A stretch of DNA of 64,000 bases, from positions 806,001 through 870,000 of the forward strand of contig CP146203.1 in the NCBI GenBank assembly GCA_039995105.1. The letters run 5' to 3'. Source of the DNA: Jonesiaceae bacterium BS-20. GTDB taxonomy: Bacteria; Actinomycetota; Actinomycetes; Actinomycetales; Cellulomonadaceae. The notes beneath the pieces are model-generated. The model worked only from the letters and a program-made list of their open reading frames with translations, was not told where the DNA came from and made no database searches. Of this stretch, positions 5,643 through 15,662 are shown one piece after another (the stretch's first letter is position 1; every line of letters begins with the position of its first letter). The position numbers and the translations under genes were made by a program.

Positions 5643-6755
5643 GTGAAGAAGTTCGCAAAGATTGCTGCTATCGGTGCAGCCGCCGCATTGACGCTGGCCG
5701 GTTGTGGCACCGCACCAGATGAGACCCCATCCAAATCCCCTGAGGCAACCTCAACAGACTCCGCCGAGCCAACACCTACCGACAAGGTCGACTTCCTCGG
5801 TTGCATGGTTTCCGACTTCGGTGGATTCGATGACAAGTCCTTCAATGAGACGTCATACAACGGACTCAAGCGTGCTGAGACAGAACTTGGCATCACCATG
5901 AAAGTTGCCGAGTCAACCGACGCGAGCGACTACCCGGTCAACATCAACGCAATGGTCCAAGAGGGCTGTGACATCATCGTCAACGTCGGGTTTGGACTTG
6001 CGGACGACACACTGGATGCCGCAATCAAGAACCCAGACACGAACTTTGCACTGGTGGACTCGGGCGTCAGTGAACCACAAGATAACGTCAAGGCCTTGCT
6101 CTTTAACACCCAAGAGGCTGCTTTCCTTGCCGGCTACGTAGCCGCAGGCGTGACCAAGACTGGCACCGTAGCGACGTTCGGTGGAATGGCATTCCCATCT
6201 GTGACGATCTTTATGGATGGATTTGTTGACGGCGTCGCCGCTTACAACGAAGCCAATGGAACGGACGTGAAGGCCATTGGATGGGACAAGGAAACCCAGA
6301 AGGGCTCCATGACCGAGACCTTTGATGAGATCGGTGCGGGCAAGACCATGAGCGAAGACCTTATTAACCAAGGTGCCGACATCATCATGCCGGTCGCTGG
6401 CCCGGTTGGTGCAGGCGCTCTGGCAGCGGCAAGTGAAAAGGAAGGCATCTACGTCATTGGCGTAGACTCCGACTTCTTTGTTGAGCACCCTCAGTACCAG
6501 GACTACGTGCTCACCTCCGTCATGAAGGCTATGGACCTTGCGGTATTCGAAACCGTTCAGTCCGCCATGAAGGGCGAATTTAGCGCAGAGACCTACGTTG
6601 GAACACTGGCTAATGGAGGTGTGGCACTTGCTGAATTCCACAACCTTGACAGCCTAGTATCCGACGATGTCAAGAAGGACGTCGAAGACCTCAAGGCGAA
6701 GATCATTTCCGGCGAACTAGTGATTGAGTCACCAAGTGCCACGGAAGTCAACTAG
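5643..6755 (+). CDS. BMP-family nucleoside-binding lipoprotein of an ABC transporter
   Basis: Substrate-binding component of a nucleoside importer, anchored to the outer face of the membrane. The lipobox is LTLAGC, with Cys about 20 residues after GTG 5643. AGGAG at 5631 fits this start, whereas the longer frame from 5607 would spoil the signal peptide. The mature protein carries family features such as LGCMVSDFGGFDDKSFNE and, later, IYVIGVDSDFF. Full length is 370 residues. It heads an operon with a double ATPase and two permeases, followed by nucleoside-degrading enzymes, which suggests purine or pyrimidine nucleosides as ligands. A hairpin right after the gene probably raises its level relative to the membrane parts. 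Confidence 0.9.
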   Translation: MKKFAKIAAIGAAAALTLAGCGTAPDETPSKSPEATSTDSAEPTPTDKVDFLGCMVSDFGGFDDKSFNETSYNGLKRAETELGITMKVAESTDASDYPVNINAMVQEGCDIIVNVGFGLADDTLDAAIKNPDTNFALVDSGVSEPQDNVKALLFNTQEAAFLAGYVAAGVTKTGTVATFGGMAFPSVTIFMDGFVDGVAAYNEANGTDVKAIGWDKETQKGSMTETFDEIGAGKTMSEDLINQGADIIMPVAGPVGAGALAAASEKEGIYVIGVDSDFFVEHPQYQDYVLTSVMKAMDLAVFETVQSAMKGEFSAETYVGTLANGGVALAEFHNLDSLVSDDVKKDVEDLKAKIISGELVIESPSATEVN

Positions 6756-6785
6756 CAACTGACGCAGAAGTACAATCTTGATGTG

Positions 6786-6815
6786 TGTGGCCCCGGGTAT
6801 TAAGCCGGGGCCACA
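6786..6815 (+). terminator. Attenuating hairpin between binding protein and ABC ATPase genes
   Basis: TGTGGCCCCGG (6786-6796) pairs perfectly with CCGGGGCCACA (6805-6815) across an 8-nt loop, with no T-run after it. In ABC operons such a hairpin after the binding-protein gene usually protects its mRNA or causes partial termination, giving excess binding protein. Confidence 0.6.
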
Positions 6816-6898
6816 TCCGTCAGGTTGGATATTGAGTCCCGTGCGCACCGAAGCGCACACGTACTGCACACTTGCACAGGCGCGGAAGGCGTAAGGGC

Positions 6899-8485
6899 AT
6901 GAAGCTGGAACTACGCGGCATCACTAAGAAATTTGGTTCCTTCACTGCCAATGACCAAATTGACTTGGTTATTGAAGAGGGCGAAATCCACGCTCTGCTG
7001 GGGGAGAACGGTGCGGGTAAGAGCACCTTGATGAACGTGATTTATGGTCTGTATGACGCAGATGAGGGTCAACTCCTAATTGATGATCAGGAGGAAAGTT
7101 TCTCGGGCCCGGGCGATGCGATGGCTGCCGGAATTGGAATGGTTCACCAGCACTTTATGCTGGTACCGGTTTTCACCGTGGCCGAGAACGTTATCCTAGG
7201 GTTTGAGCCCACCGGCAAGACAGGCATCATTAGTCTAAAAGAAGCTCGCCGCCGGGTTAAGGAGATCTCAGACAAATTTGGATTCAACGTTGATCCAGAT
7301 GCACGGGTAGAGGATCTGCCGGTTGGAGTTCAGCAGCGTGTCGAGATTATCAAGGCGCTCTCGCGTGATGCCCAAGTCCTGATTTTGGATGAGCCCACGG
7401 CCGTTTTGACACCTCAGGAAACTGACGAGCTCATTGAGATCATGCGGCAATTGAAAGCGAATGGGACTTCGATCGTCTTCATCACCCACAAATTGCGTGA
7501 GGTCAAAGCCGTCGCTGATCGAATTACCGTTATTCGGCGCGGCAAGGTTGTTGGGACCCAGAGTCCGGATGCCTCGGAGACTGAGCTGGCATCTGCGATG
7601 GTTGGCCGCAGCGTCAACCTAGGGGTAGACAAGGAGACCGCAAAGGTGGGCGATGTCCGGCTCAAGATCCGTGATTTGTCGCTGCTAGCTGACAACGGTG
7701 TTCCGGTTCTACAAAATATTGATCTAGATGTTGCTGCCGGGGAAATCTTGGCAATTGCGGGTGTCCAAGGAAATGGCCAAACCGAGATTACCGAGACCAT
7801 CTTGGGGATGCACCCAAAGGCTTTCGGGTCAATTGAACTTAACGGCGCACAGATTTTGGGTAACTCCATTAAGGAGGTGCTGAACCAAGGAATAGGCTTT
7901 GTTCCCGAAGACCGCTCCAAGGATGGCATGATTGCCGAGTTCACAATCGAGGAGAACTTGATCCTTGACGTCTTTGATCAGCCCCCCTTTGCTAAAGGAT
8001 GGGGCATTCAACAAGATGTGGTCGCCAAAAATGCGGCAAAGTACATAGACCTTTTCGATGTACGGACTCAGTCTGCAAAATCGCTGGGCTCTCAACTCTC
8101 CGGCGGAAACCAGCAAAAAGTAGTATTGGCGCGGGAAATGTCACGCCCACTGCAACTCTTTATCGCATCCCAGCCCACTCGAGGGCTTGACGTCGGATCG
8201 ATCGAATTTGTGCACAAGCGCATTGTGTCCGAACGCGACGTAGGAACCGCTGTCATCATTGTCTCGACCGAGCTAGATGAGGTTTTGGCTTTAGCAGACC
8301 GGATCGCGATCATGTACGAGGGAAAGATAGTAGGCATAGTTGGCCCAGAGACCAGCCGAGACGTGCTTGGTTTGATGATGGCTGGACTTTCTCTAGAGGA
8401 AGCGCAGGAGCAGGCAGCGAAGCATACAACTGCTCTCGGGCAAGCCGACAAAGCAAGTGATAACCCAATTGGAGGCGCACTGTGA
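6899..8485 (+). CDS. Nucleoside ABC transporter, tandem ATP-binding protein
   Basis: Energises import through the two permeases that follow. It contains two ATPase halves. The first has Walker A GENGAGKST (about residues 38-46), signature LPVGVQQRVEIIKAL and Walker B VLILDEPT. The second has a degenerate Walker A (GVQGNGQTE) and signature LSGGNQQKVVLAREM, as in RbsA- and NupA-type proteins where only one site is canonical. I start at ATG 6899 behind a purine-rich site rather than at the upstream 6872 codon, because MKLELRGITKKFG is the usual beginning. Its stop overlaps the next start (GTGA), so the operon is tightly coupled. Confidence 0.92.
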   Translation: MKLELRGITKKFGSFTANDQIDLVIEEGEIHALLGENGAGKSTLMNVIYGLYDADEGQLLIDDQEESFSGPGDAMAAGIGMVHQHFMLVPVFTVAENVILGFEPTGKTGIISLKEARRRVKEISDKFGFNVDPDARVEDLPVGVQQRVEIIKALSRDAQVLILDEPTAVLTPQETDELIEIMRQLKANGTSIVFITHKLREVKAVADRITVIRRGKVVGTQSPDASETELASAMVGRSVNLGVDKETAKVGDVRLKIRDLSLLADNGVPVLQNIDLDVAAGEILAIAGVQGNGQTEITETILGMHPKAFGSIELNGAQILGNSIKEVLNQGIGFVPEDRSKDGMIAEFTIEENLILDVFDQPPFAKGWGIQQDVVAKNAAKYIDLFDVRTQSAKSLGSQLSGGNQQKVVLAREMSRPLQLFIASQPTRGLDVGSIEFVHKRIVSERDVGTAVIIVSTELDEVLALADRIAIMYEGKIVGIVGPETSRDVLGLMMAGLSLEEAQEQAAKHTTALGQADKASDNPIGGAL

Positions 8486-9708
8486 GTATTTCAGCACCGA
8501 GCACGGCGGCTCCCAAAGATGAGTCCCCGCAGAAGCCGAAGGAAACGCGCTTTAGTGGTGTCCTGCGGGAAATTACCCAAAGTAACGCAACCGTAGTTTT
8601 CCTTGCAATCGTAGCCGCACTGCTATTGGCCGCAGTGCTGGTAGCAGCAGCAAGTTCTGAGGTTCAGCGCACGGCCGGCTACCTTTTTGCCCGCCCAACC
8701 GACTTCTTTGGCGCAGTTTGGGACGCAGTAGGTGGGGCGTACTACTCACTGTTCCGTGGTGCAATCTTTGATCCGCAGGCAAAAGACTTTACCCGGATGA
8801 TTAAGCCAATTACCGAAACATTGACTTCGTCAACACCGCTGATCTTTGCGGGGCTGGGATTGGGTATTGGATTTAGGTCCGGAATCTTCAACATTGGTGC
8901 CCAGGGGCAGGTTATCTTGGGGGCGGTCTTCTCCGGTTTCATCGGGTTTACCTTCCAGCTGCCATTCGGCGTGCACATGCTAGTTGCCATGATCGGTGGG
9001 TTGCTGGCTGGAGCCTTTTGGGGTGGTATCGCCGGTTTCCTCAAAGCAAGATTTGGTGCCAACGAGGTTATCGTCACGATCATGTTGAACTCGATCGCAG
9101 GGTTCCTCATGTCCTATCTCCTGACAACATCGGCGTTTATCCGACCGGGCAGCAATAATCCAATCTCTCAGCGTGTCCATGACACCGCAATGTTCCCAAA
9201 CCTGTTGGGCGATCCGTTCCGCCTCCACTTAGGGTTTGTGTTTGCGCTGCTAGCGGCGTGGGCGGTTTGGTGGCTCATGGAGCGCTCAACCCTGGGATTC
9301 AAGTTCCGTGCGGTGGGCTTCAACGCCGATGCCGCTAGAACCGCCGGTATCAAGGTCAGTGCTACCTACCTGTACGTCATGCTCGTCTCTGGTGCACTAG
9401 CTGGCCTCGGTGGAGTAGCCCAGTCGCTAGGAACCGAGGGAGCACTTCAAGAAGGCGTTGCCGGGTCGATTGGTTTTGATGCGATTACGGTTGCCTTGTT
9501 GGGCAGGTCGCGGCCGCTAGGCATTGTTGGTGCAGCACTACTTTTTGGTGCGCTGCGGGCAGGTTCACCGCTCATGCAGGCCGCAAGTAACACGCCGATT
9601 GATATTGTTCAGGTTGTTCAGGCCCTGGTAGTTCTCCTCATTGCCGCGCCACCGCTGGTGCGAGCCATGTTCCGTCTACCCGTTCCTGCTAAGGAGGTTC
9701 AAGCATGA
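8482..9708 (+). CDS. Nucleoside ABC transporter permease 1
   Basis: Integral membrane subunit of the importer, 408 residues with about nine to ten hydrophobic segments. The stretch FRSGIFNIGAQGQ is the hallmark of branched-chain and nucleoside type permeases; GANEVIVTIMLNSIAGFL and GFNADAARTAGI are typical of the YufP-like group. Start GTG 8482 overlaps the ATPase stop. A 40-residue hydrophilic N-terminal tail precedes the first span. It pairs with the next permease, which it overlaps by 4 bp. Confidence 0.9.
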   Translation: MSISAPSTAAPKDESPQKPKETRFSGVLREITQSNATVVFLAIVAALLLAAVLVAAASSEVQRTAGYLFARPTDFFGAVWDAVGGAYYSLFRGAIFDPQAKDFTRMIKPITETLTSSTPLIFAGLGLGIGFRSGIFNIGAQGQVILGAVFSGFIGFTFQLPFGVHMLVAMIGGLLAGAFWGGIAGFLKARFGANEVIVTIMLNSIAGFLMSYLLTTSAFIRPGSNNPISQRVHDTAMFPNLLGDPFRLHLGFVFALLAAWAVWWLMERSTLGFKFRAVGFNADAARTAGIKVSATYLYVMLVSGALAGLGGVAQSLGTEGALQEGVAGSIGFDAITVALLGRSRPLGIVGAALLFGALRAGSPLMQAASNTPIDIVQVVQALVVLLIAAPPLVRAMFRLPVPAKEVQA

Positions 9709-10997
9709 GTTCGACGACTCTTTCCCCCGTGCAGCCAAGAGAGCTAGTGCACAATGTGCAACCTGCGATTTCTTGGAAGGCTCCTATTGCCTACGCGGTG
9801 ATTGGTGTGTTGTGTTTGGTTGCTTTTGCCTTCGGTTCAGGAGCGCAAGACACCACCACATTCCAACTATCCACGGGACGCGACACATTCAAAATCGCTC
9901 CAATTGAGATGGGCTCGCGTTCGGTAGCAATGACCCTGAGCGTGATGGTGCTCGTATTGGCTGGTCTAGCAGCGTACGGTGCGGTCAAACGCATCCGGTT
10001 TGGGGCTTGGTTACCAACTTTGGTTGGGTTGCTATCGATTCTTGCTTTCCTTGTGTGGGCTGCAGCAGGTAAAGATGGTTCGATGCCGCTGCCACAGTTG
10101 CTAGGTACGGGAATCATTTTGGCAGTCCCGCTTGGCTTCGGAGCCATGTCCGGACTAATCTGTGAACGAGTTGGCATCATCAACATCGCGATTGAAGGCC
10201 AACTCCTTGCAGGAGCCTTTGCAGCCGCTGTATCTGCGACTCTATTGGGTAACCCGTATGTTGCTCTGGTTGCCGCACCAATTGCCGGAGCGCTGGTAGC
10301 GGTATTACTAGCATTCTTCACAATCAAGTATCACGTTGATCAGATTGTGGTCGGTGTGGTCTTGAACGTGTTGGTAGTTGGTGTCACTAGTTATCTATTT
10401 TCTACGGTTCTCAAAGAGAACAAGGCAACTTGGAATACCCCACCCACCTTGCCAACAATCGAGATACCACTATTGAGTGATATCCCGGTGATTGGCTCGG
10501 TCTTGTTCAACCAAAACATCCTCGTGTACTTGATGTTCATCTTTGTCATTGTGTTGCAGTTTCTGTTGTTCCGCAGCCGGTGGGGCCTACGCCTTCGTTC
10601 GGTTGGGGAACACCCTAAGGCCGCGGACACCGTGGGCATCAACGTCATCAGGACCCGTTGGATTAACACCATGGTTGGTGGCGCCGTTGCCGGGCTGGGA
10701 GGGGCCTCCTTCACCGTGGCCCTCGGGTTGGGCTTTGGTAAGGAAATGACCGGTGGCAAGGGATATATTGCTTTGGCGGCAATGATTCTAGGCCGATGGA
10801 ACCCTAACGGAGCGCTGGCTGCAGCATTGTTCTTTGGCTTTGCAGAAGGTTTACGCGGCACCCTGTCCGTGGTGGGAACCCCCGTGCCCACTCAGTTCCT
10901 TGCGATGCTGCCGTACCTAGCTACAATCTTTGCGGTTGCGGGTCTGGTTGGAAAAGTTAAGGCTCCTGCAGCTGAAGGCGTTCCTTACATTAAGTAG
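9705..10997 (+). CDS. Nucleoside ABC transporter permease 2
   Basis: Second permease of the importer, 430 residues, with many membrane spans and the motif CERVGIINIAIEGQLL matching the coupling region of its partner. GEHPKAADTVGINV and GGKGYIALAAMILGRWNP are usual for YufQ-like proteins. It starts at ATG 9705 inside the previous stop and has a full AAGGAGG site at 9691-9697. The operon appears to end here: a 12-bp hairpin follows, and cdd has its own upstream operator. Co-location with salvage enzymes supports nucleoside uptake. Confidence 0.9.
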   Translation: MSSTTLSPVQPRELVHNVQPAISWKAPIAYAVIGVLCLVAFAFGSGAQDTTTFQLSTGRDTFKIAPIEMGSRSVAMTLSVMVLVLAGLAAYGAVKRIRFGAWLPTLVGLLSILAFLVWAAAGKDGSMPLPQLLGTGIILAVPLGFGAMSGLICERVGIINIAIEGQLLAGAFAAAVSATLLGNPYVALVAAPIAGALVAVLLAFFTIKYHVDQIVVGVVLNVLVVGVTSYLFSTVLKENKATWNTPPTLPTIEIPLLSDIPVIGSVLFNQNILVYLMFIFVIVLQFLLFRSRWGLRLRSVGEHPKAADTVGINVIRTRWINTMVGGAVAGLGGASFTVALGLGFGKEMTGGKGYIALAAMILGRWNPNGALAAALFFGFAEGLRGTLSVVGTPVPTQFLAMLPYLATIFAVAGLVGKVKAPAAEGVPYIK

Positions 10998-11155: not shown

Positions 11156-11581
11156 ATGTCACGAGCACAAGCATTAGCCCAAGACATTGACTGGAGCGCA
11201 CTGCGATTAGCCGCGCTGGAAGTTATGAAAAAGGCCTACGTGCCATATTCCAACTTTCCCGTTGGAGCGGCGGGCCTAGCCCATGACGGGCGGATTGTGG
11301 CCGGGTGCAACGTAGAGAACGCCGGCTACGGGGTCACCCTGTGCGCTGAGTGTGGACTTATCTCAGATCTTGTGGCCACGGGAGGCGGACCCCTCGTCGC
11401 CTTCGTATGTGTCGATGGCAACGGAGATGTGCTCATGCCATGTGGGCGCTGCCGCCAACTGTTATGGGAACACGGTGGACCAGACCTTGTTTTGGACACT
11501 GTCAGCGGTTTCAAAACGATGGATCAGGTCCTTCCGGACGCATTTGGACCCTCAGACTTGAAAGAAAGAGCTAAAAAATGA
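11156..11581 (+). CDS. cdd: Cytidine deaminase
   Basis: Deaminates cytidine and deoxycytidine to the uridine forms, feeding the phosphorylase encoded next. The 141-residue protein shows the zinc site in full: NVENAG with the substrate-binding and following residues, CAEC with the first Cys and catalytic Glu, and PCGRCRQ with the other two Cys ligands. It starts at ATG 11156, five bases after GGGAGGA; an ATG four bases earlier is in another frame. Its stop overlaps deoA (ATGA). Confidence 0.95.
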   Translation: MSRAQALAQDIDWSALRLAALEVMKKAYVPYSNFPVGAAGLAHDGRIVAGCNVENAGYGVTLCAECGLISDLVATGGGPLVAFVCVDGNGDVLMPCGRCRQLLWEHGGPDLVLDTVSGFKTMDQVLPDAFGPSDLKERAKK

Positions 11582-12888
11582 CTGCAAAACCAGCTGCAAA
11601 TGCGTTTGACGCCGTAGACATCATCCGGGCCAAGCGAGACGGACAAGAGCTGAGCCGCGACCAGATTAACTGGGTTATTGACGCTTACACGCATGACTTG
11701 GTGCCCGACTACCAGATGGCAGCGCTGAACATGGCAATTCTCCTCAACGGAATGGACCGCACGGAGATTGCCACCTGGACATCAGCGATGATCGCCTCGG
11801 GTGAGACCATGGATTTCTCTGCACTGCGTTGGCCAACCTCTGACAAACACTCAACCGGCGGTGTGGGAGACAAGATCACCTTGCCGCTCGCGCCCTTGGT
11901 CGCCGTGTTTGATGTAGCGGTCCCACAACTTTCCGGGCGGGGCCTTGGCCACACGGGAGGTACCCTAGACAAACTTGAGGCGATCTCGGGCTGGCAAGCG
12001 GCCATGAGCAACGAACAGATGATGGCCCAGCTGGACTCCGTTGGCGCCGTCATCTGTCAGGCGGGATCGGGCTTGGCCCCGGCAGACCGCAAGCTGTATG
12101 CACTACGGGACGTGACCGGCACGGTTGAGGCTATTCCGCTCATTGCATCCTCAATCATGAGCAAGAAGATCGCTGAAGGCACCGGTGCGCTCGTGCTTGA
12201 TGTTAAAGCCGGCTCAGGAGCCTTCATGAAAAACCAGGATCTGGCACGCGAGTTGGCCCGGACCATGGTAGATCTTGGAAAGGATGCTGGTGTGCACACC
12301 GTGGCGCTCATGACCAACATGGATGTTCCCCTCGGGCTCACGGTGGGTAATGCACTTGAAGTGCGAGAGTCGATCGAGGTGCTTGCCGGTGGTGGGCCAA
12401 AGGACGTTGTTGACCTGACCGTTGCCCTTGCCGTTGAGATGCTCTTGGGTGCAAAGAAAGACGTTTCCGAGCAAGAAGTCCGGGCGGCACTCAACGATGG
12501 CCGAGCCATGGATAAGTGGCGTGCCATGATCGCTGCCCAAGGCGGCGACAATGATGCTCCGTTGCCGGTTGGCAAGGAATCACACCAGATTGTTGCCGAA
12601 CGTGACGGTCTGCTTACCTCTCTCGATGCCATGGACGTGGGCGTTGCGTCCTGGCGCTTAGGAGCTGGGCGAGCACAGAAAAATGCGCCAGTTCAGGCCG
12701 GTGCCGGAATTGAAATTCACGCGAAGCCGGGTCAACAGGTAACCAAGGGACAACCCTTGATGACTCTGTACACCGATACCCCGGATCGTTTTGAACGAGC
12801 AATCGAATCGGCTACCAACGCGGTTGGCATTGGAAACGTTGGCGACACGATTACCGGTGAACGGTTGATTTTGGATCGCATTGAGTGA
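11578..12888 (+). CDS. deoA: Thymidine / pyrimidine-nucleoside phosphorylase
   Basis: Splits thymidine, and probably uridine or deoxyuridine, with phosphate to the base and (deoxy)ribose 1-phosphate. The signature SGRGLGHTGGTLDKLEAI is intact, preceded by the phosphate-binding KHSTGGVGDK and followed by MSKKIAEGTGALVLDVK. At 436 residues it is full length, with the three-part fold implied by the C-terminal barrel-sandwich region (ARAQ-like GRAQKNAPVQAGAGI). ATG 11578 overlaps the cdd stop. The family name could be deoA or pdp; substrate breadth cannot be read from sequence. Confidence 0.92.
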   Translation: MTAKPAANAFDAVDIIRAKRDGQELSRDQINWVIDAYTHDLVPDYQMAALNMAILLNGMDRTEIATWTSAMIASGETMDFSALRWPTSDKHSTGGVGDKITLPLAPLVAVFDVAVPQLSGRGLGHTGGTLDKLEAISGWQAAMSNEQMMAQLDSVGAVICQAGSGLAPADRKLYALRDVTGTVEAIPLIASSIMSKKIAEGTGALVLDVKAGSGAFMKNQDLARELARTMVDLGKDAGVHTVALMTNMDVPLGLTVGNALEVRESIEVLAGGGPKDVVDLTVALAVEMLLGAKKDVSEQEVRAALNDGRAMDKWRAMIAAQGGDNDAPLPVGKESHQIVAERDGLLTSLDAMDVGVASWRLGAGRAQKNAPVQAGAGIEIHAKPGQQVTKGQPLMTLYTDTPDRFERAIESATNAVGIGNVGDTITGERLILDRIE

Positions 12889-12941
12889 TCTGCCGCTCTA
12901 TGGTTAGAGAACACTACCAATTTTAACTGTGAGGGCATGTC

Positions 12942-13829
12942 TTGGCGGGTTCAAGTTTTCAATTGACCACTTTTCTGTATGGACTCGGTGGTGGGCGCAG
13001 GCGAATTCCGGCTGCGCCCACCCTCAAGCAAACCAGAACCGGGTTGCTGCCAGTAGCTGAAGGACGGGTTGAACTTGTTGGTCAAGATTCCACTTGCCAC
13101 GCTGTCCAATATGATTTCACCTCATGCGGCAGCGCTGCCGGAGCTATCGCTTTAGCCGACGTAAATGAGTCTCTAGCTCAGTGGCTGCAAGGACATGAAC
13201 CGGATCTGCCGGAGGGCCTAGCCAAGTTGGAGATGCCATCCGTCCCACTCGATACTGGTGGTCGGTTCGAGTGGTTGCAAAAGAACTTGAAACAGATTAG
13301 TAACCACCGGGCGCTTGGGCCGTTTACCTGGCCCAGTGGTGCTGGAACCCCACCGTGGGGTGCAAAAAGGGTCATGAGTCTTGGGTCGGGAGTTCGATAC
13401 ATCGACCGTATGGTGGTAAACACCTCCATGCGCCAGCGTGAGCGGACCCTTACCGCTGCGGCGGTTGCGGCAGACCTCGGATACCCGGTCCTGCTGTATG
13501 TCGGTGGGGACAGTTCAAAGGGCTGGAAGACCGCCGTTCCGCGCCACGTTGTGGTGCTGCACGGCGGACCAGCACCCATCGAGGAGACCGAGGGTTTTCT
13601 TGATGACCTGGACACGGAGGCTCGGCTGACCAAGATGGCCCGGGAAATCAAAGACAGACTACAGGCGGCACGGGGTGAGGTTTTTGACCCGAGTCTGCTC
13701 ATCTATGACCCGGCGACAGGCACCAACACTGCAGTAACTATGAAGCAACTCATGAGCAACTCCGTACCTGCAACCGCATTGGGTGGTTGGCCGCACATTG
13801 TGTGGATGGTACTTCCGGTACAACGCTAG
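12942..13829 (+). CDS. Unknown protein with papain/C39-like catalytic residue spacing
   Basis: I do not recognise this 295-residue protein as a named family. Visible in it are Q56 and C62 in AVQYDFTSCGSAAG, H202 in PRHVVVLHG and D256 in IYDPATGTN, the order and Gln-Cys spacing expected of a papain-fold cysteine peptidase of the C39-like group. There is no signal peptide or membrane span, so it should be cytoplasmic. TTG 12942 is the likely start, with GAGGG six bases upstream. It sits between deoA and add, with only 12 bp to add, so it is probably co-transcribed with nucleoside salvage. A role as protease, amidase or transglutaminase-like enzyme is inference. Confidence 0.6.
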   Translation: MAGSSFQLTTFLYGLGGGRRRIPAAPTLKQTRTGLLPVAEGRVELVGQDSTCHAVQYDFTSCGSAAGAIALADVNESLAQWLQGHEPDLPEGLAKLEMPSVPLDTGGRFEWLQKNLKQISNHRALGPFTWPSGAGTPPWGAKRVMSLGSGVRYIDRMVVNTSMRQRERTLTAAAVAADLGYPVLLYVGGDSSKGWKTAVPRHVVVLHGGPAPIEETEGFLDDLDTEARLTKMAREIKDRLQAARGEVFDPSLLIYDPATGTNTAVTMKQLMSNSVPATALGGWPHIVWMVLPVQR

Positions 13830-13841
13830 AGGGAGAAAAAC

Positions 13842-14930
13842 GTGACTACCAACTTGGCAGTGACCCGAGAACAGCTCTTAGCCCTGCCCAAAGTTGTTCT
13901 GCACGATCACCTAGATGGGGGACTACGACCCCAAACAATTATTGACCTAGCCGCTGAGATTGGGCACGTCCTTCCTCATGACACCGCCACCGAGTTGGGT
14001 GCTTGGTTTGTCGCTGCGGCAGACTCGGGGTCACTTGAACGCTACCTCGAAACGTTTGAGCACACCGTTGCGGTCATGCAGACGCGTCATGGGTTGATTC
14101 GAGTAGCCCAAGAGATGGTAGCTGACATGGTTGCCGACGGCGTGATCTACGCTGAGTCTAGGTGGGCGCCCGAGCAACATGTGGCCGGGGGACTCACAAT
14201 GCAGCAGGCCGTAGACGCCGTCCAGGAAGGTATTGCAGCGGGGGTTGCGCAAGCAGCAGCAGATGGACAATTTATTGAGGTCCATCAGATCCTAGCCGCG
14301 ATGCGCCACCTTGATCGCTGGGACGAGGTTTCCGACTTAGCTTTGGCCAATAGGGAACGAGGCGTGTGTGGGTTTGATATTGCCGGCCCTGAAGTTGGCT
14401 TCTTGCCGGATAGGTTTGCCCAAGTATGGCAAAAATTAGCGCTTGCGAATTTTCCGGTGACCATCCACGCTGGTGAAGAACCCGGGATTGACTCCATAAG
14501 CCGGGCGGTGCACGTGGGCCAGGCCAGTCGCCTTGGCCACGGCGCGTATTTGAGTGCGGATATCACGGGTTTGGGAACAGAAAACGCACGGTTAGGGCCG
14601 CTGGCAAATTGGGTACGGGACGCTCAGATACCACTTGAGGTTTGTCCGTGTTCCAATCTTCAAACGGGCGTGGCCGCAACGATTGCGGAACACCCCATTA
14701 CTGCGCTGCGCGACCTCGACTTTGCGGTGACGATCAACACCGACAACCGCCTCATGTCCGGCACTTCGATGACCAATGAGATGTTCCGGTTGGTTAGTGA
14801 GGCCGGATGGACCGTTGCAGATCTTTGTGACGTCACATTGGCGGCGGCGTGGGGTGCTTTTATCCACCATGACCAACGCCATGCACTGGGCCAGCGGATC
14901 TTGGCTGGCTTTGAACAAGACTCGAACTAA
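13842..14930 (+). CDS. add: Adenosine deaminase
   Basis: Converts adenosine and deoxyadenosine to inosine forms for the phosphorylase at 18533. Zinc and catalytic motifs are present in order: LHDHLDGGLRP near residue 20, HAGEEPG at about 210, SRLGHG at about 230, and NTDNRLMSGTSMTNE with the paired Asp residues near 300. The 362-residue length is normal. The first motif has HDH rather than the commoner HxH spacing variants, still consistent with two His ligands. GTG 13842 follows a GGGAG site and a short gap from the unknown gene. Confidence 0.93.
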   Translation: MTTNLAVTREQLLALPKVVLHDHLDGGLRPQTIIDLAAEIGHVLPHDTATELGAWFVAAADSGSLERYLETFEHTVAVMQTRHGLIRVAQEMVADMVADGVIYAESRWAPEQHVAGGLTMQQAVDAVQEGIAAGVAQAAADGQFIEVHQILAAMRHLDRWDEVSDLALANRERGVCGFDIAGPEVGFLPDRFAQVWQKLALANFPVTIHAGEEPGIDSISRAVHVGQASRLGHGAYLSADITGLGTENARLGPLANWVRDAQIPLEVCPCSNLQTGVAATIAEHPITALRDLDFAVTINTDNRLMSGTSMTNEMFRLVSEAGWTVADLCDVTLAAAWGAFIHHDQRHALGQRILAGFEQDSN

Positions 14931-14957: not shown

Positions 14958-15662
14958 ATGTCACAAGATTTACGGGCGCAGGTAGCCAAGATGGTTGACC
15001 ACACCCTACTCAAGCCAGAATCCACCCCGGCAGATGTTGCTGCGTTGATCGCAGAGGCAGCAGACTTAGGTGTCTACTCGGTCTGTGTTTCACCATCCCA
15101 ACTCCCCGTCCAGATCCCACAAGGCTCGGGCGTGCTTGTGGCAACGGTCGTCGGGTTCCCATCCGGTGCTGTCAAGAGCTCGGTCAAAGCCGTCGAGGCC
15201 GCCCAAGCCGTTGCCGATGGGGCCGACGAGGTGGACATGGTCATCAATCTTGGCGCGGTCAAAGCCGGCGATTGGGACCTGGTGCAAAGTGACATCAAGG
15301 CGGTTCGTGATGGCGCACCAAAACCGACCGTGCTCAAAGTCATTATTGAATCGGCAGCCCTGACAGATGACGAGATAGTGCGTGCCTGTGAGGCCAGCGA
15401 GGCTGCAGGTGCCGACTTTGTCAAGACCTCAACCGGATTCCACAGCGCCGGTGGGGCCTCTGAACACGCAATTAAACTCATGGCCCAGACAGTTGGTACC
15501 CGTCTTGGTATCAAGGCGTCCGGAGGAGTGCGCGATGGCGCCACCGCCCGCAAGATGATTGCGGCCGGAGCTACCCGCCTGGGTCTTTCCGGAACCGCAG
15601 GGGTCTTGGACTCCCTCGATGACCAGGCTCAGGATCAGTCCGCTGGGTCAACCGGATACTAG
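14958..15662 (+). CDS. deoC: Deoxyribose-phosphate aldolase
   Basis: Cleaves deoxyribose 5-phosphate to glyceraldehyde 3-phosphate and acetaldehyde, the last step of deoxynucleoside breakdown. The barrel enzyme shows VDHTLLKPE at the N-terminus, [18 protein letters not shown], and the Schiff-base lysine in DFVKTSTGF, with a second conserved lysine in IKASGGVRD. The length of 234 residues is typical; the last dozen residues ([14 protein letters not shown]) are a species-specific tail. It ends the salvage operon. TAGGAG precedes the ATG. Confidence 0.95.

What the first reader, a model, noticed from the sequence alone, without database searches (positions are those of the whole stretch)
12942..13829. 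Putative papain-fold (C39-like) enzyme inside a nucleoside-degradation operon
Q56, C62, H202 and D256 lie in the order of papain-like catalytic residues, with the same Gln-to-Cys distance of six as papain, and D256 sits in a YDPATG context as in C39-like proteins. There is no signal peptide. A cytosolic cysteine hydrolase co-encoded with deoA, add and deoC has no obvious explanation and could be an amide hydrolase for a modified nucleoside or a regulator.
Basis: partly seen in the sequence, partly recalled or inferred. Interest (0 to 1): 0.6.

Follow-up and report, generated by a model that had tools for sequence, protein, structure and literature searches.

The report
Papain-fold enzyme of nucleoside-salvage operons
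An unclassified bacterial enzyme with the shape and active site of papain-type cysteine hydrolases is kept beside nucleoside-breakdown genes in about a hundred sampled actinobacteria and is fused to a uridine-kinase-like protein in four of them, so it probably does an as yet unknown chemical step in nucleoside recycling.

Summary
The gene at 12942-13829 is real. It encodes an intracellular papain-fold (clan CA, C39-like) protein with an intact active-site pattern. AlphaFold2 models of the window protein and of a distant relative are confident (pLDDT 89 and 93), and every top solved-structure match is papain-like: CDI toxin, Cpe1, the PCAT1 C39 domain, phytochelatin synthase. Q56, C62 and H202 are invariant in 32 aligned members. 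Position 256 is D or E. No Pfam or NCBIfam family covers it.

The link to nucleoside genes is not peculiar to this genome. The order deoA-X-add (or deoA-X-deoC) holds in 28 of 31 loci from relatives and in 77 of 80 named loci (the other three lie at contig edges). In Nocardioides a divergent branch lies next to add/deoC instead, directly behind a uridine-kinase-like gene, and the two are one ORF in four species.

Fold and active site are therefore well supported, and the tie to nucleoside metabolism is much stronger than first proposed. The substrate is unknown. I favour a small-molecule hydrolase acting on a modified nucleoside or nucleotide, at modest confidence; regulation by modifying a pathway protein is the main rival. 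One relative is fused to a T7SS/WXG100 N-terminus, showing that the domain is shared with toxin-like proteins.

The parts
12942..13829 (+). Gene X: 295-aa papain-fold (C39-like) cysteine protein, TTG start, no Pfam/NCBIfam family
12931..12935 (+). GAGGG ribosome-site-like motif 6 nt before the TTG; overlaps the in-frame stop TGA 12930-12932
   Evidence: sequence
13107..13109 (+). Q56 codon, predicted oxyanion-hole Gln, invariant
13125..13127 (+). C62 codon, predicted nucleophile, at the N-terminus of the core helix 62-74
13545..13547 (+). H202 codon (PRH motif), on strand 202-208
13707..13709 (+). D256 codon (YDP), end of strand 252-256; D or E in homologues
11578..12888 (+). deoA, thymidine phosphorylase; conserved upstream neighbour
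13842..14930 (+). add, adenosine deaminase; conserved downstream neighbour, 12 nt gap
14958..15662 (+). deoC, deoxyribose-phosphate aldolase
11156..11581 (+). cdd, cytidine deaminase; overlaps deoA by 4 nt
5652..10997 (+). BMP-type lipoprotein, ABC ATPase and two permeases: probable nucleoside importer of the same operon region
   Evidence: nearest NCBIfam models are below cut-off, so the substrate is inferred from context

Best explanation
X is an active cytosolic papain-fold cysteine hydrolase of a previously unclassified actinobacterial family whose physiological role lies in nucleoside catabolism and salvage. Shown here: the gene, its conservation, the predicted fold, the conserved Gln/Cys/His/(Asp or Glu) site, the conserved genomic link and the fusion to a uridine-kinase-like protein. 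Inferred: Cys62, activated by His202 and Asp/Glu256 with Gln56 in the oxyanion hole, attacks a carbonyl and forms an acyl-enzyme that water resolves. Most likely but not shown: the substrate is a small nucleoside-like metabolite (for example an N-acyl or aminoacyl nucleoside taken up by the operon's importer) whose hydrolysis feeds an ordinary nucleoside to DeoA/Add/DeoC in one lineage and to a uridine-kinase-like enzyme in the other.
For: Fold: AF2 pLDDT 89.4 with C62 at the start of the core helix, H202 at the start of a core strand and D256 at the end of the next. A compact relative at pLDDT 93.4 gives papain-like PDB matches at the top, including the PCAT1 C39 domain (probability 1.00, TMt 0.59) and Cpe1 (TMt 0.60). 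Catalysis: invariant Q/C/H. Role: deoA-X-add or deoA-X-deoC in 28 of 31 loci of relatives; deoA upstream of X in 77 of 80 named loci, the other three being at contig edges. X-deoC without deoA in two more genomes. Next to add, deoC or deoA in a divergent Nocardioides branch with a different gene order and orientation. Directly behind a PF00485 uridine-kinase-like gene in 20 loci, of which 4 are one ORF with it. A pathway-level substrate explains both partner sets with one activity.
Against: No substrate evidence exists. The closest solved folds with known activity act on peptides or proteins (C39, Cpe1) or on glutathione (phytochelatin synthase). The Cdd of the same operon could already handle N4-acyl-cytidines, as prokaryotic homotetrameric Cdds do (PMC9897663 abstract). 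Some relatives lie near unrelated genes (clpX/valS, ugd-type), so the tie to nucleosides is not universal for the family.
Confidence: 0.4

Rival explanations
1. X is a regulator: a cysteine protease or protein-modifying enzyme (deamidase, peptide cleavage) that tunes an enzyme or transporter of the nucleoside pathway.
For: Top structural neighbours are protein-cleaving (Cpe1 cleaves GyrB/ParE at double-glycine motifs, PMC12136450; C39 domains). Fusion to the Udk-like kinase could place it next to a protein target.
Against: Partners differ between lineages (DeoA/Add/DeoC versus Udk-like), so a single protein target would have to change; no regulator or degradation partner is conserved with it.
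Confidence: 0.25
2. X has an activity unrelated to nucleosides; its place in the operon reflects ancestral gene order in a co-transcribed core region.
For: DUF202 genes and a small acidic gene also sit between deoA and add without known relevance. Some X relatives are elsewhere (clpX/valS, ugd-type gene, PPOX-type oxidase).
Against: Linkage occurs in two branches with different order and orientation, and X is fused to a uridine-kinase-like protein in four species.
Confidence: 0.2
3. X is a domesticated interbacterial toxin domain or an antagonism-related protein.
For: Best fold matches are CDI and T6SS papain-like toxins; one relative carries a WXG100/T7SS N-terminus (L183).
Against: Chromosomal core operon with no trafficking domain or evident immunity partner; absent from the plasmid and phage collections searched; only 1 toxin-like fusion in the genomes searched.
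Confidence: 0.08
4. X is a papain-fold pseudoenzyme used for binding only.
For: Two relatives in one genus have lost the Cys.
Against: Q, C and H are invariant in all 52 Cellulomonadaceae-type members.
Confidence: 0.05

Closest known systems
C39 / C39_2 peptidases (PF03412, PF13529), clan CA
   Same: Papain-like core, Cys at helix start, His then acid in a Y-[DE]-P motif; PCAT1 C39 domain and C39-like 3erv among the fold matches
   Different: Not fused to ABC exporters, no significant sequence match for the window protein, Glu more often than Asp as third residue
Cpe1 / CDI papain-like toxins (PDB 9l5u, 8ssk, 8ssm)
   Same: Best fold matches
   Different: No trafficking domain or evident immunity gene; sits in a metabolic operon
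Phytochelatin synthase Alr0975 (C83)
   Same: Papain-fold enzyme acting on a small molecule; among the best matches for the window model
   Different: Glutathione chemistry, no sequence similarity detected
YqfB-type amidohydrolases (E. coli; PMC6972931)
   Same: Precedent for an amidohydrolase in catabolism of N4-acetylcytidine
   Different: ASCH domain, unrelated fold

Membership tests
Papain-like cysteine proteinases, clan CA (defined as in PMC10318531) | Core helix with the catalytic Cys at its N-terminus | tested here: met
   Helix 62-74 starts at C62; helix 23-35 starts at C23 in the compact relative
Papain-like cysteine proteinases, clan CA (defined as in PMC10318531) | His on one core strand and a third polar residue (N, Q, D or E) on the next | tested here: met
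   H202 on strand 202-208, D256 ending strand 252-256; E65/D32/N1/Q1 and one gap in 100 members
Papain-like cysteine proteinases, clan CA (defined as in PMC10318531) | Structural match to solved members | tested here: met
   Top matches are papain-like; E-values modest (6e-4 and 4e-5)
Papain-like cysteine proteinases, clan CA (defined as in PMC10318531) | Cysteine-dependent hydrolytic activity | not testable with these tools
   Needs purified protein
Peptidase C39 / C39_2 (PF03412 / PF13529) | Sequence profile match above the curated cut-off | tested here: not met
   None for the window protein; weak hits (best E 0.0014 and 0.0043) in 1-2 of 31 members; hhalign with C39_2 at 0.7-6% probability
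Peptidase C39 / C39_2 (PF03412 / PF13529) | C39-type fold | tested here: met
   PCAT1 peptidase domain 7n87, probability 1.00, TMt 0.59, matched by the compact relative
Peptidase C39 (PF03412) | Fused to an ABC exporter that secretes double-glycine leader peptides | tested here: not met
   Stand-alone; the ABC genes upstream are an importer type with a binding lipoprotein
Polymorphic toxin papain-like domains (Tox-PL type, PMC3482391) | C-terminal domain of an exported multidomain protein | tested here: not met
   Window protein has no trafficking domain; only L183 has a WXG100/T7SS N-terminus

The most novel reading that the evidence does not exclude
A new family of papain-fold enzymes dedicated to nucleoside metabolism: a cysteine hydrolase that removes an acyl, aminoacyl or other carbonyl-linked group from modified nucleosides or nucleotides so that they can enter phosphorolysis or kinase salvage, in some species as a single bifunctional uridine-kinase-like/hydrolase protein.
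Probability: 0.35. Interest if true: 0.7.

Novelty: new variant of a known kind. Interest (0 to 1): 0.55.

Why it matters
Papain-fold enzymes are mostly known as proteases, deubiquitinases, cell-wall enzymes, acyltransferases or toxins. A conserved member in a core nucleoside catabolic operon, and fused to a uridine-kinase-like protein in other species, points to an undescribed step, substrate or control point of nucleoside salvage. The family has no Pfam or NCBIfam model, so it is probably annotated as hypothetical. The catalytic-residue prediction and the operon make the question directly testable.

Tried and rejected
Pfam and NCBIfam scans of the protein, of 31 members and of distant members: no family; weak C39 hits only. 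Sequence search of the PDB with the family profile: one chance hit to a DAPG biosynthesis protein, E 0.22. Profile-profile comparison with actinobacterial C39_2 proteins: not significant, although in A1 versus A5 the catalytic His columns fall close to each other. Plasmid and phage collections: no match. The DUF202 pair and small acidic gene in the same interval were considered as partners and rejected as obligatory, since they vary independently of X. One toxin-type fusion (L183) was followed in 61 genomes of its family and found nowhere else. An alignment with some truncated or wrong-frame rows (A3) was not used for conclusions. First attempt at the named-genome scan with the full alignment failed. 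Literature searches for a papain-like protein in this operon, or fused to uridine kinase, found nothing in the open library. Viral fold library: the better matches were papain-like proteins or an endolysin, no further clue.

Full report
Observation. The window's ORF 12942-13829 (+) encodes 295 aa starting at TTG. The TTG is the first possible start after an in-frame stop at 12930-12932, and a GAGGG motif lies 6 nt before it. The closest homologue begins in the same way. Gln56, Cys62, His202 and Asp256 are present as stated. The gene sits 53 nt after deoA and 12 nt before add in a run of same-strand genes: BMP-type lipoprotein, ABC ATPase, two permeases, cdd, deoA, X, add, deoC. Cdd, DeoA, Add and DeoC exceed NCBIfam curated cut-offs. 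That the protein is cytosolic rests on the absence of an evident signal peptide in the translated sequence; no signal-peptide predictor was run.

Conservation. BLAST of 59 relatives found homologues in 33; named hits show that the group is Cellulomonadaceae and neighbours (Oerskovia, Cellulosimicrobium, Cellulomonas, Promicromonospora, Isoptericola, Georgenia, Sanguibacter, Actinotalea). In 32 aligned members Q56, C62, H202, W130, P131, G135, P138, W139, P200, R201, P257, W283 and P292 are invariant, and 256 is E in 27 and D in 5. Distant homologues across Actinomycetia (29 of 297 genomes; 50 of 81 genomes of one genus called Nocardioides here) keep Q 48/48, C 46/48 and H 47/48, with D, E, N or Q as the third residue. 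The named set was fetched with patterns of which one includes the Cys motif, so it is not counted as independent evidence on the Cys. The variation D/E/N/Q at the third position is what is described for papain-like enzymes in general (PMC10318531).

Fold. AlphaFold2 with 31 homologues gave pLDDT 89.4 and pTM 0.86. Foldseek against the PDB gave papain-like proteins at the top: Citrobacter rodentium CDI toxin (E 6e-4), phytochelatin synthase Alr0975, Cpe1 toxin, C39-like 3erv. A compact relative from the second lineage gave pLDDT 93.4, and its matches are again papain-like: CDI toxin (E 4e-5), Cpe1 (TMt 0.60), PCAT1 C39 domain (TMt 0.59), SpeB. Whole-chain TM-scores are moderate (0.3-0.6), so the nearest relative is not fixed, but the fold class is. 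C62 starts the core helix, H202 starts a core strand and D256 ends the next one, which is the canonical layout. No Pfam or NCBIfam family matches the window protein, and comparison with C39_2 profiles is not significant. It is therefore C39-like in fold, not a C39 family member by sequence.

Genomic context. In 31 X loci with long flanks, 27 have deoA-X-add and one has deoA-X-deoC. Two (genus g5) have X-deoC with an Rrf2-type gene upstream and no deoA nearby. One more distant genome (G052) has X elsewhere. In 80 named loci, 77 have deoA upstream of X (the other three are at contig edges), 67 have add downstream, 12 have deoC instead, and one has neither within the stretch held. The DUF202 pair sometimes found in the same interval occurs without X in outgroups, so X is not just part of that insertion. 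Of the family members without a detected X, some have rearranged or shortened deoA-add intervals.

Second lineage. In the genus taken as Nocardioides a divergent branch of X lies next to add, deoC or deoA, usually convergent with add, directly behind a gene with a uridine-kinase-type P-loop and a PF00485 match above the gathering score. This holds in 20 loci: in 16 the two genes abut or overlap, and in four (L184, L257, L269, L271) they are one open reading frame (Pfam places PRK in the N-terminal half of L184 and L257). Uridine-kinase-like genes of this type also lie in the deoA/add region of some X-less outgroups, so the kinase belongs to that region. On a FastTree tree the Cellulomonadaceae type forms a supported clade (0.97); the kinase-linked clade is weakly supported (0.58) and sits beside paralogues of the same genus in other loci. 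The link may thus be ancestral or have arisen twice; either way it survived rearrangement.

Other relatives. X relatives also occur by clpX/valS (family f17), beside a UDP-glucose-dehydrogenase-type gene (a second Nocardioides group), near a PPOX-type oxidase (family f22) and, once, as the C-terminal domain of a WXG100/T7SS-type protein (L183). Two members in one genus have lost the Cys. No match was found in the plasmid or phage collections.

Mechanism. Shown: gene, conservation, predicted fold, active-site layout, genomic linkage, fusion. Inferred from the family: acyl-enzyme hydrolysis (or transfer) by Cys62/His202/Asp-Glu256 with Gln56 in the oxyanion hole. The substrate is not known. The partners differ between lineages (phosphorylase/deaminase/aldolase in one, a kinase in the other) but share the nucleoside level, so one substrate at that level is the simplest link. 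Bacteria do have dedicated amidohydrolases for acylated nucleosides (E. coli YqfB for N4-acetylcytidine, PMC6972931), and prokaryotic Cdds can convert N4-acyl-cytidines themselves (PMC9897663; both from the abstracts), so N4-acetylcytidine in particular is not compelling as the substrate. Regulation by cleavage or modification of a pathway protein is the main rival, suggested by the proteolytic nature of the closest folds (Cpe1, PMC12136450).

Verdict. The functional guess is plausible and made firmer by the conserved linkage and the kinase fusions, but is not established.

Noticed in passing
L184:6578-7828, L257 about 1003-2157, L269 and L271 (Nocardioides-like): Uridine-kinase-like (PF00485) domain and X domain in a single open reading frame; in 16 other loci the two genes abut or overlap.
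   Followed up: yes
L183:7076-8611 (-): WXG100/T7SS-signal N-terminus with the same papain-fold domain at the C-terminus; not found in the other 60 genomes searched from its family.
   Followed up: partly
L177:6797-7927, L191:6486-7580: X relatives in which the catalytic Cys is replaced (A or G), in L191 the His too: likely pseudoenzymes.
   Followed up: partly
L033:9891-10624, L048:8320-9122: Two DUF202 membrane-protein genes between deoA and X in many loci, also present between deoA and add in X-less outgroups.
   Followed up: partly
L033:8576-8803, L048:10253-10492: Small acidic protein of 75-79 aa with a conserved Y-[HS]-P...ARPD motif between X and add in many loci; no Pfam family.
   Followed up: no
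L172, L173, L174 (family f17): X relative placed near clpX and/or valS; in L172 and L180 a mycothiol-dependent-isomerase-type gene is also nearby (Pfam-confirmed in L180 only).
   Followed up: no
L049:8648-10039: This X copy carries long in-frame tandem repeats (VVEPVETT-type and DDARP-type) of unknown meaning.
   Followed up: no
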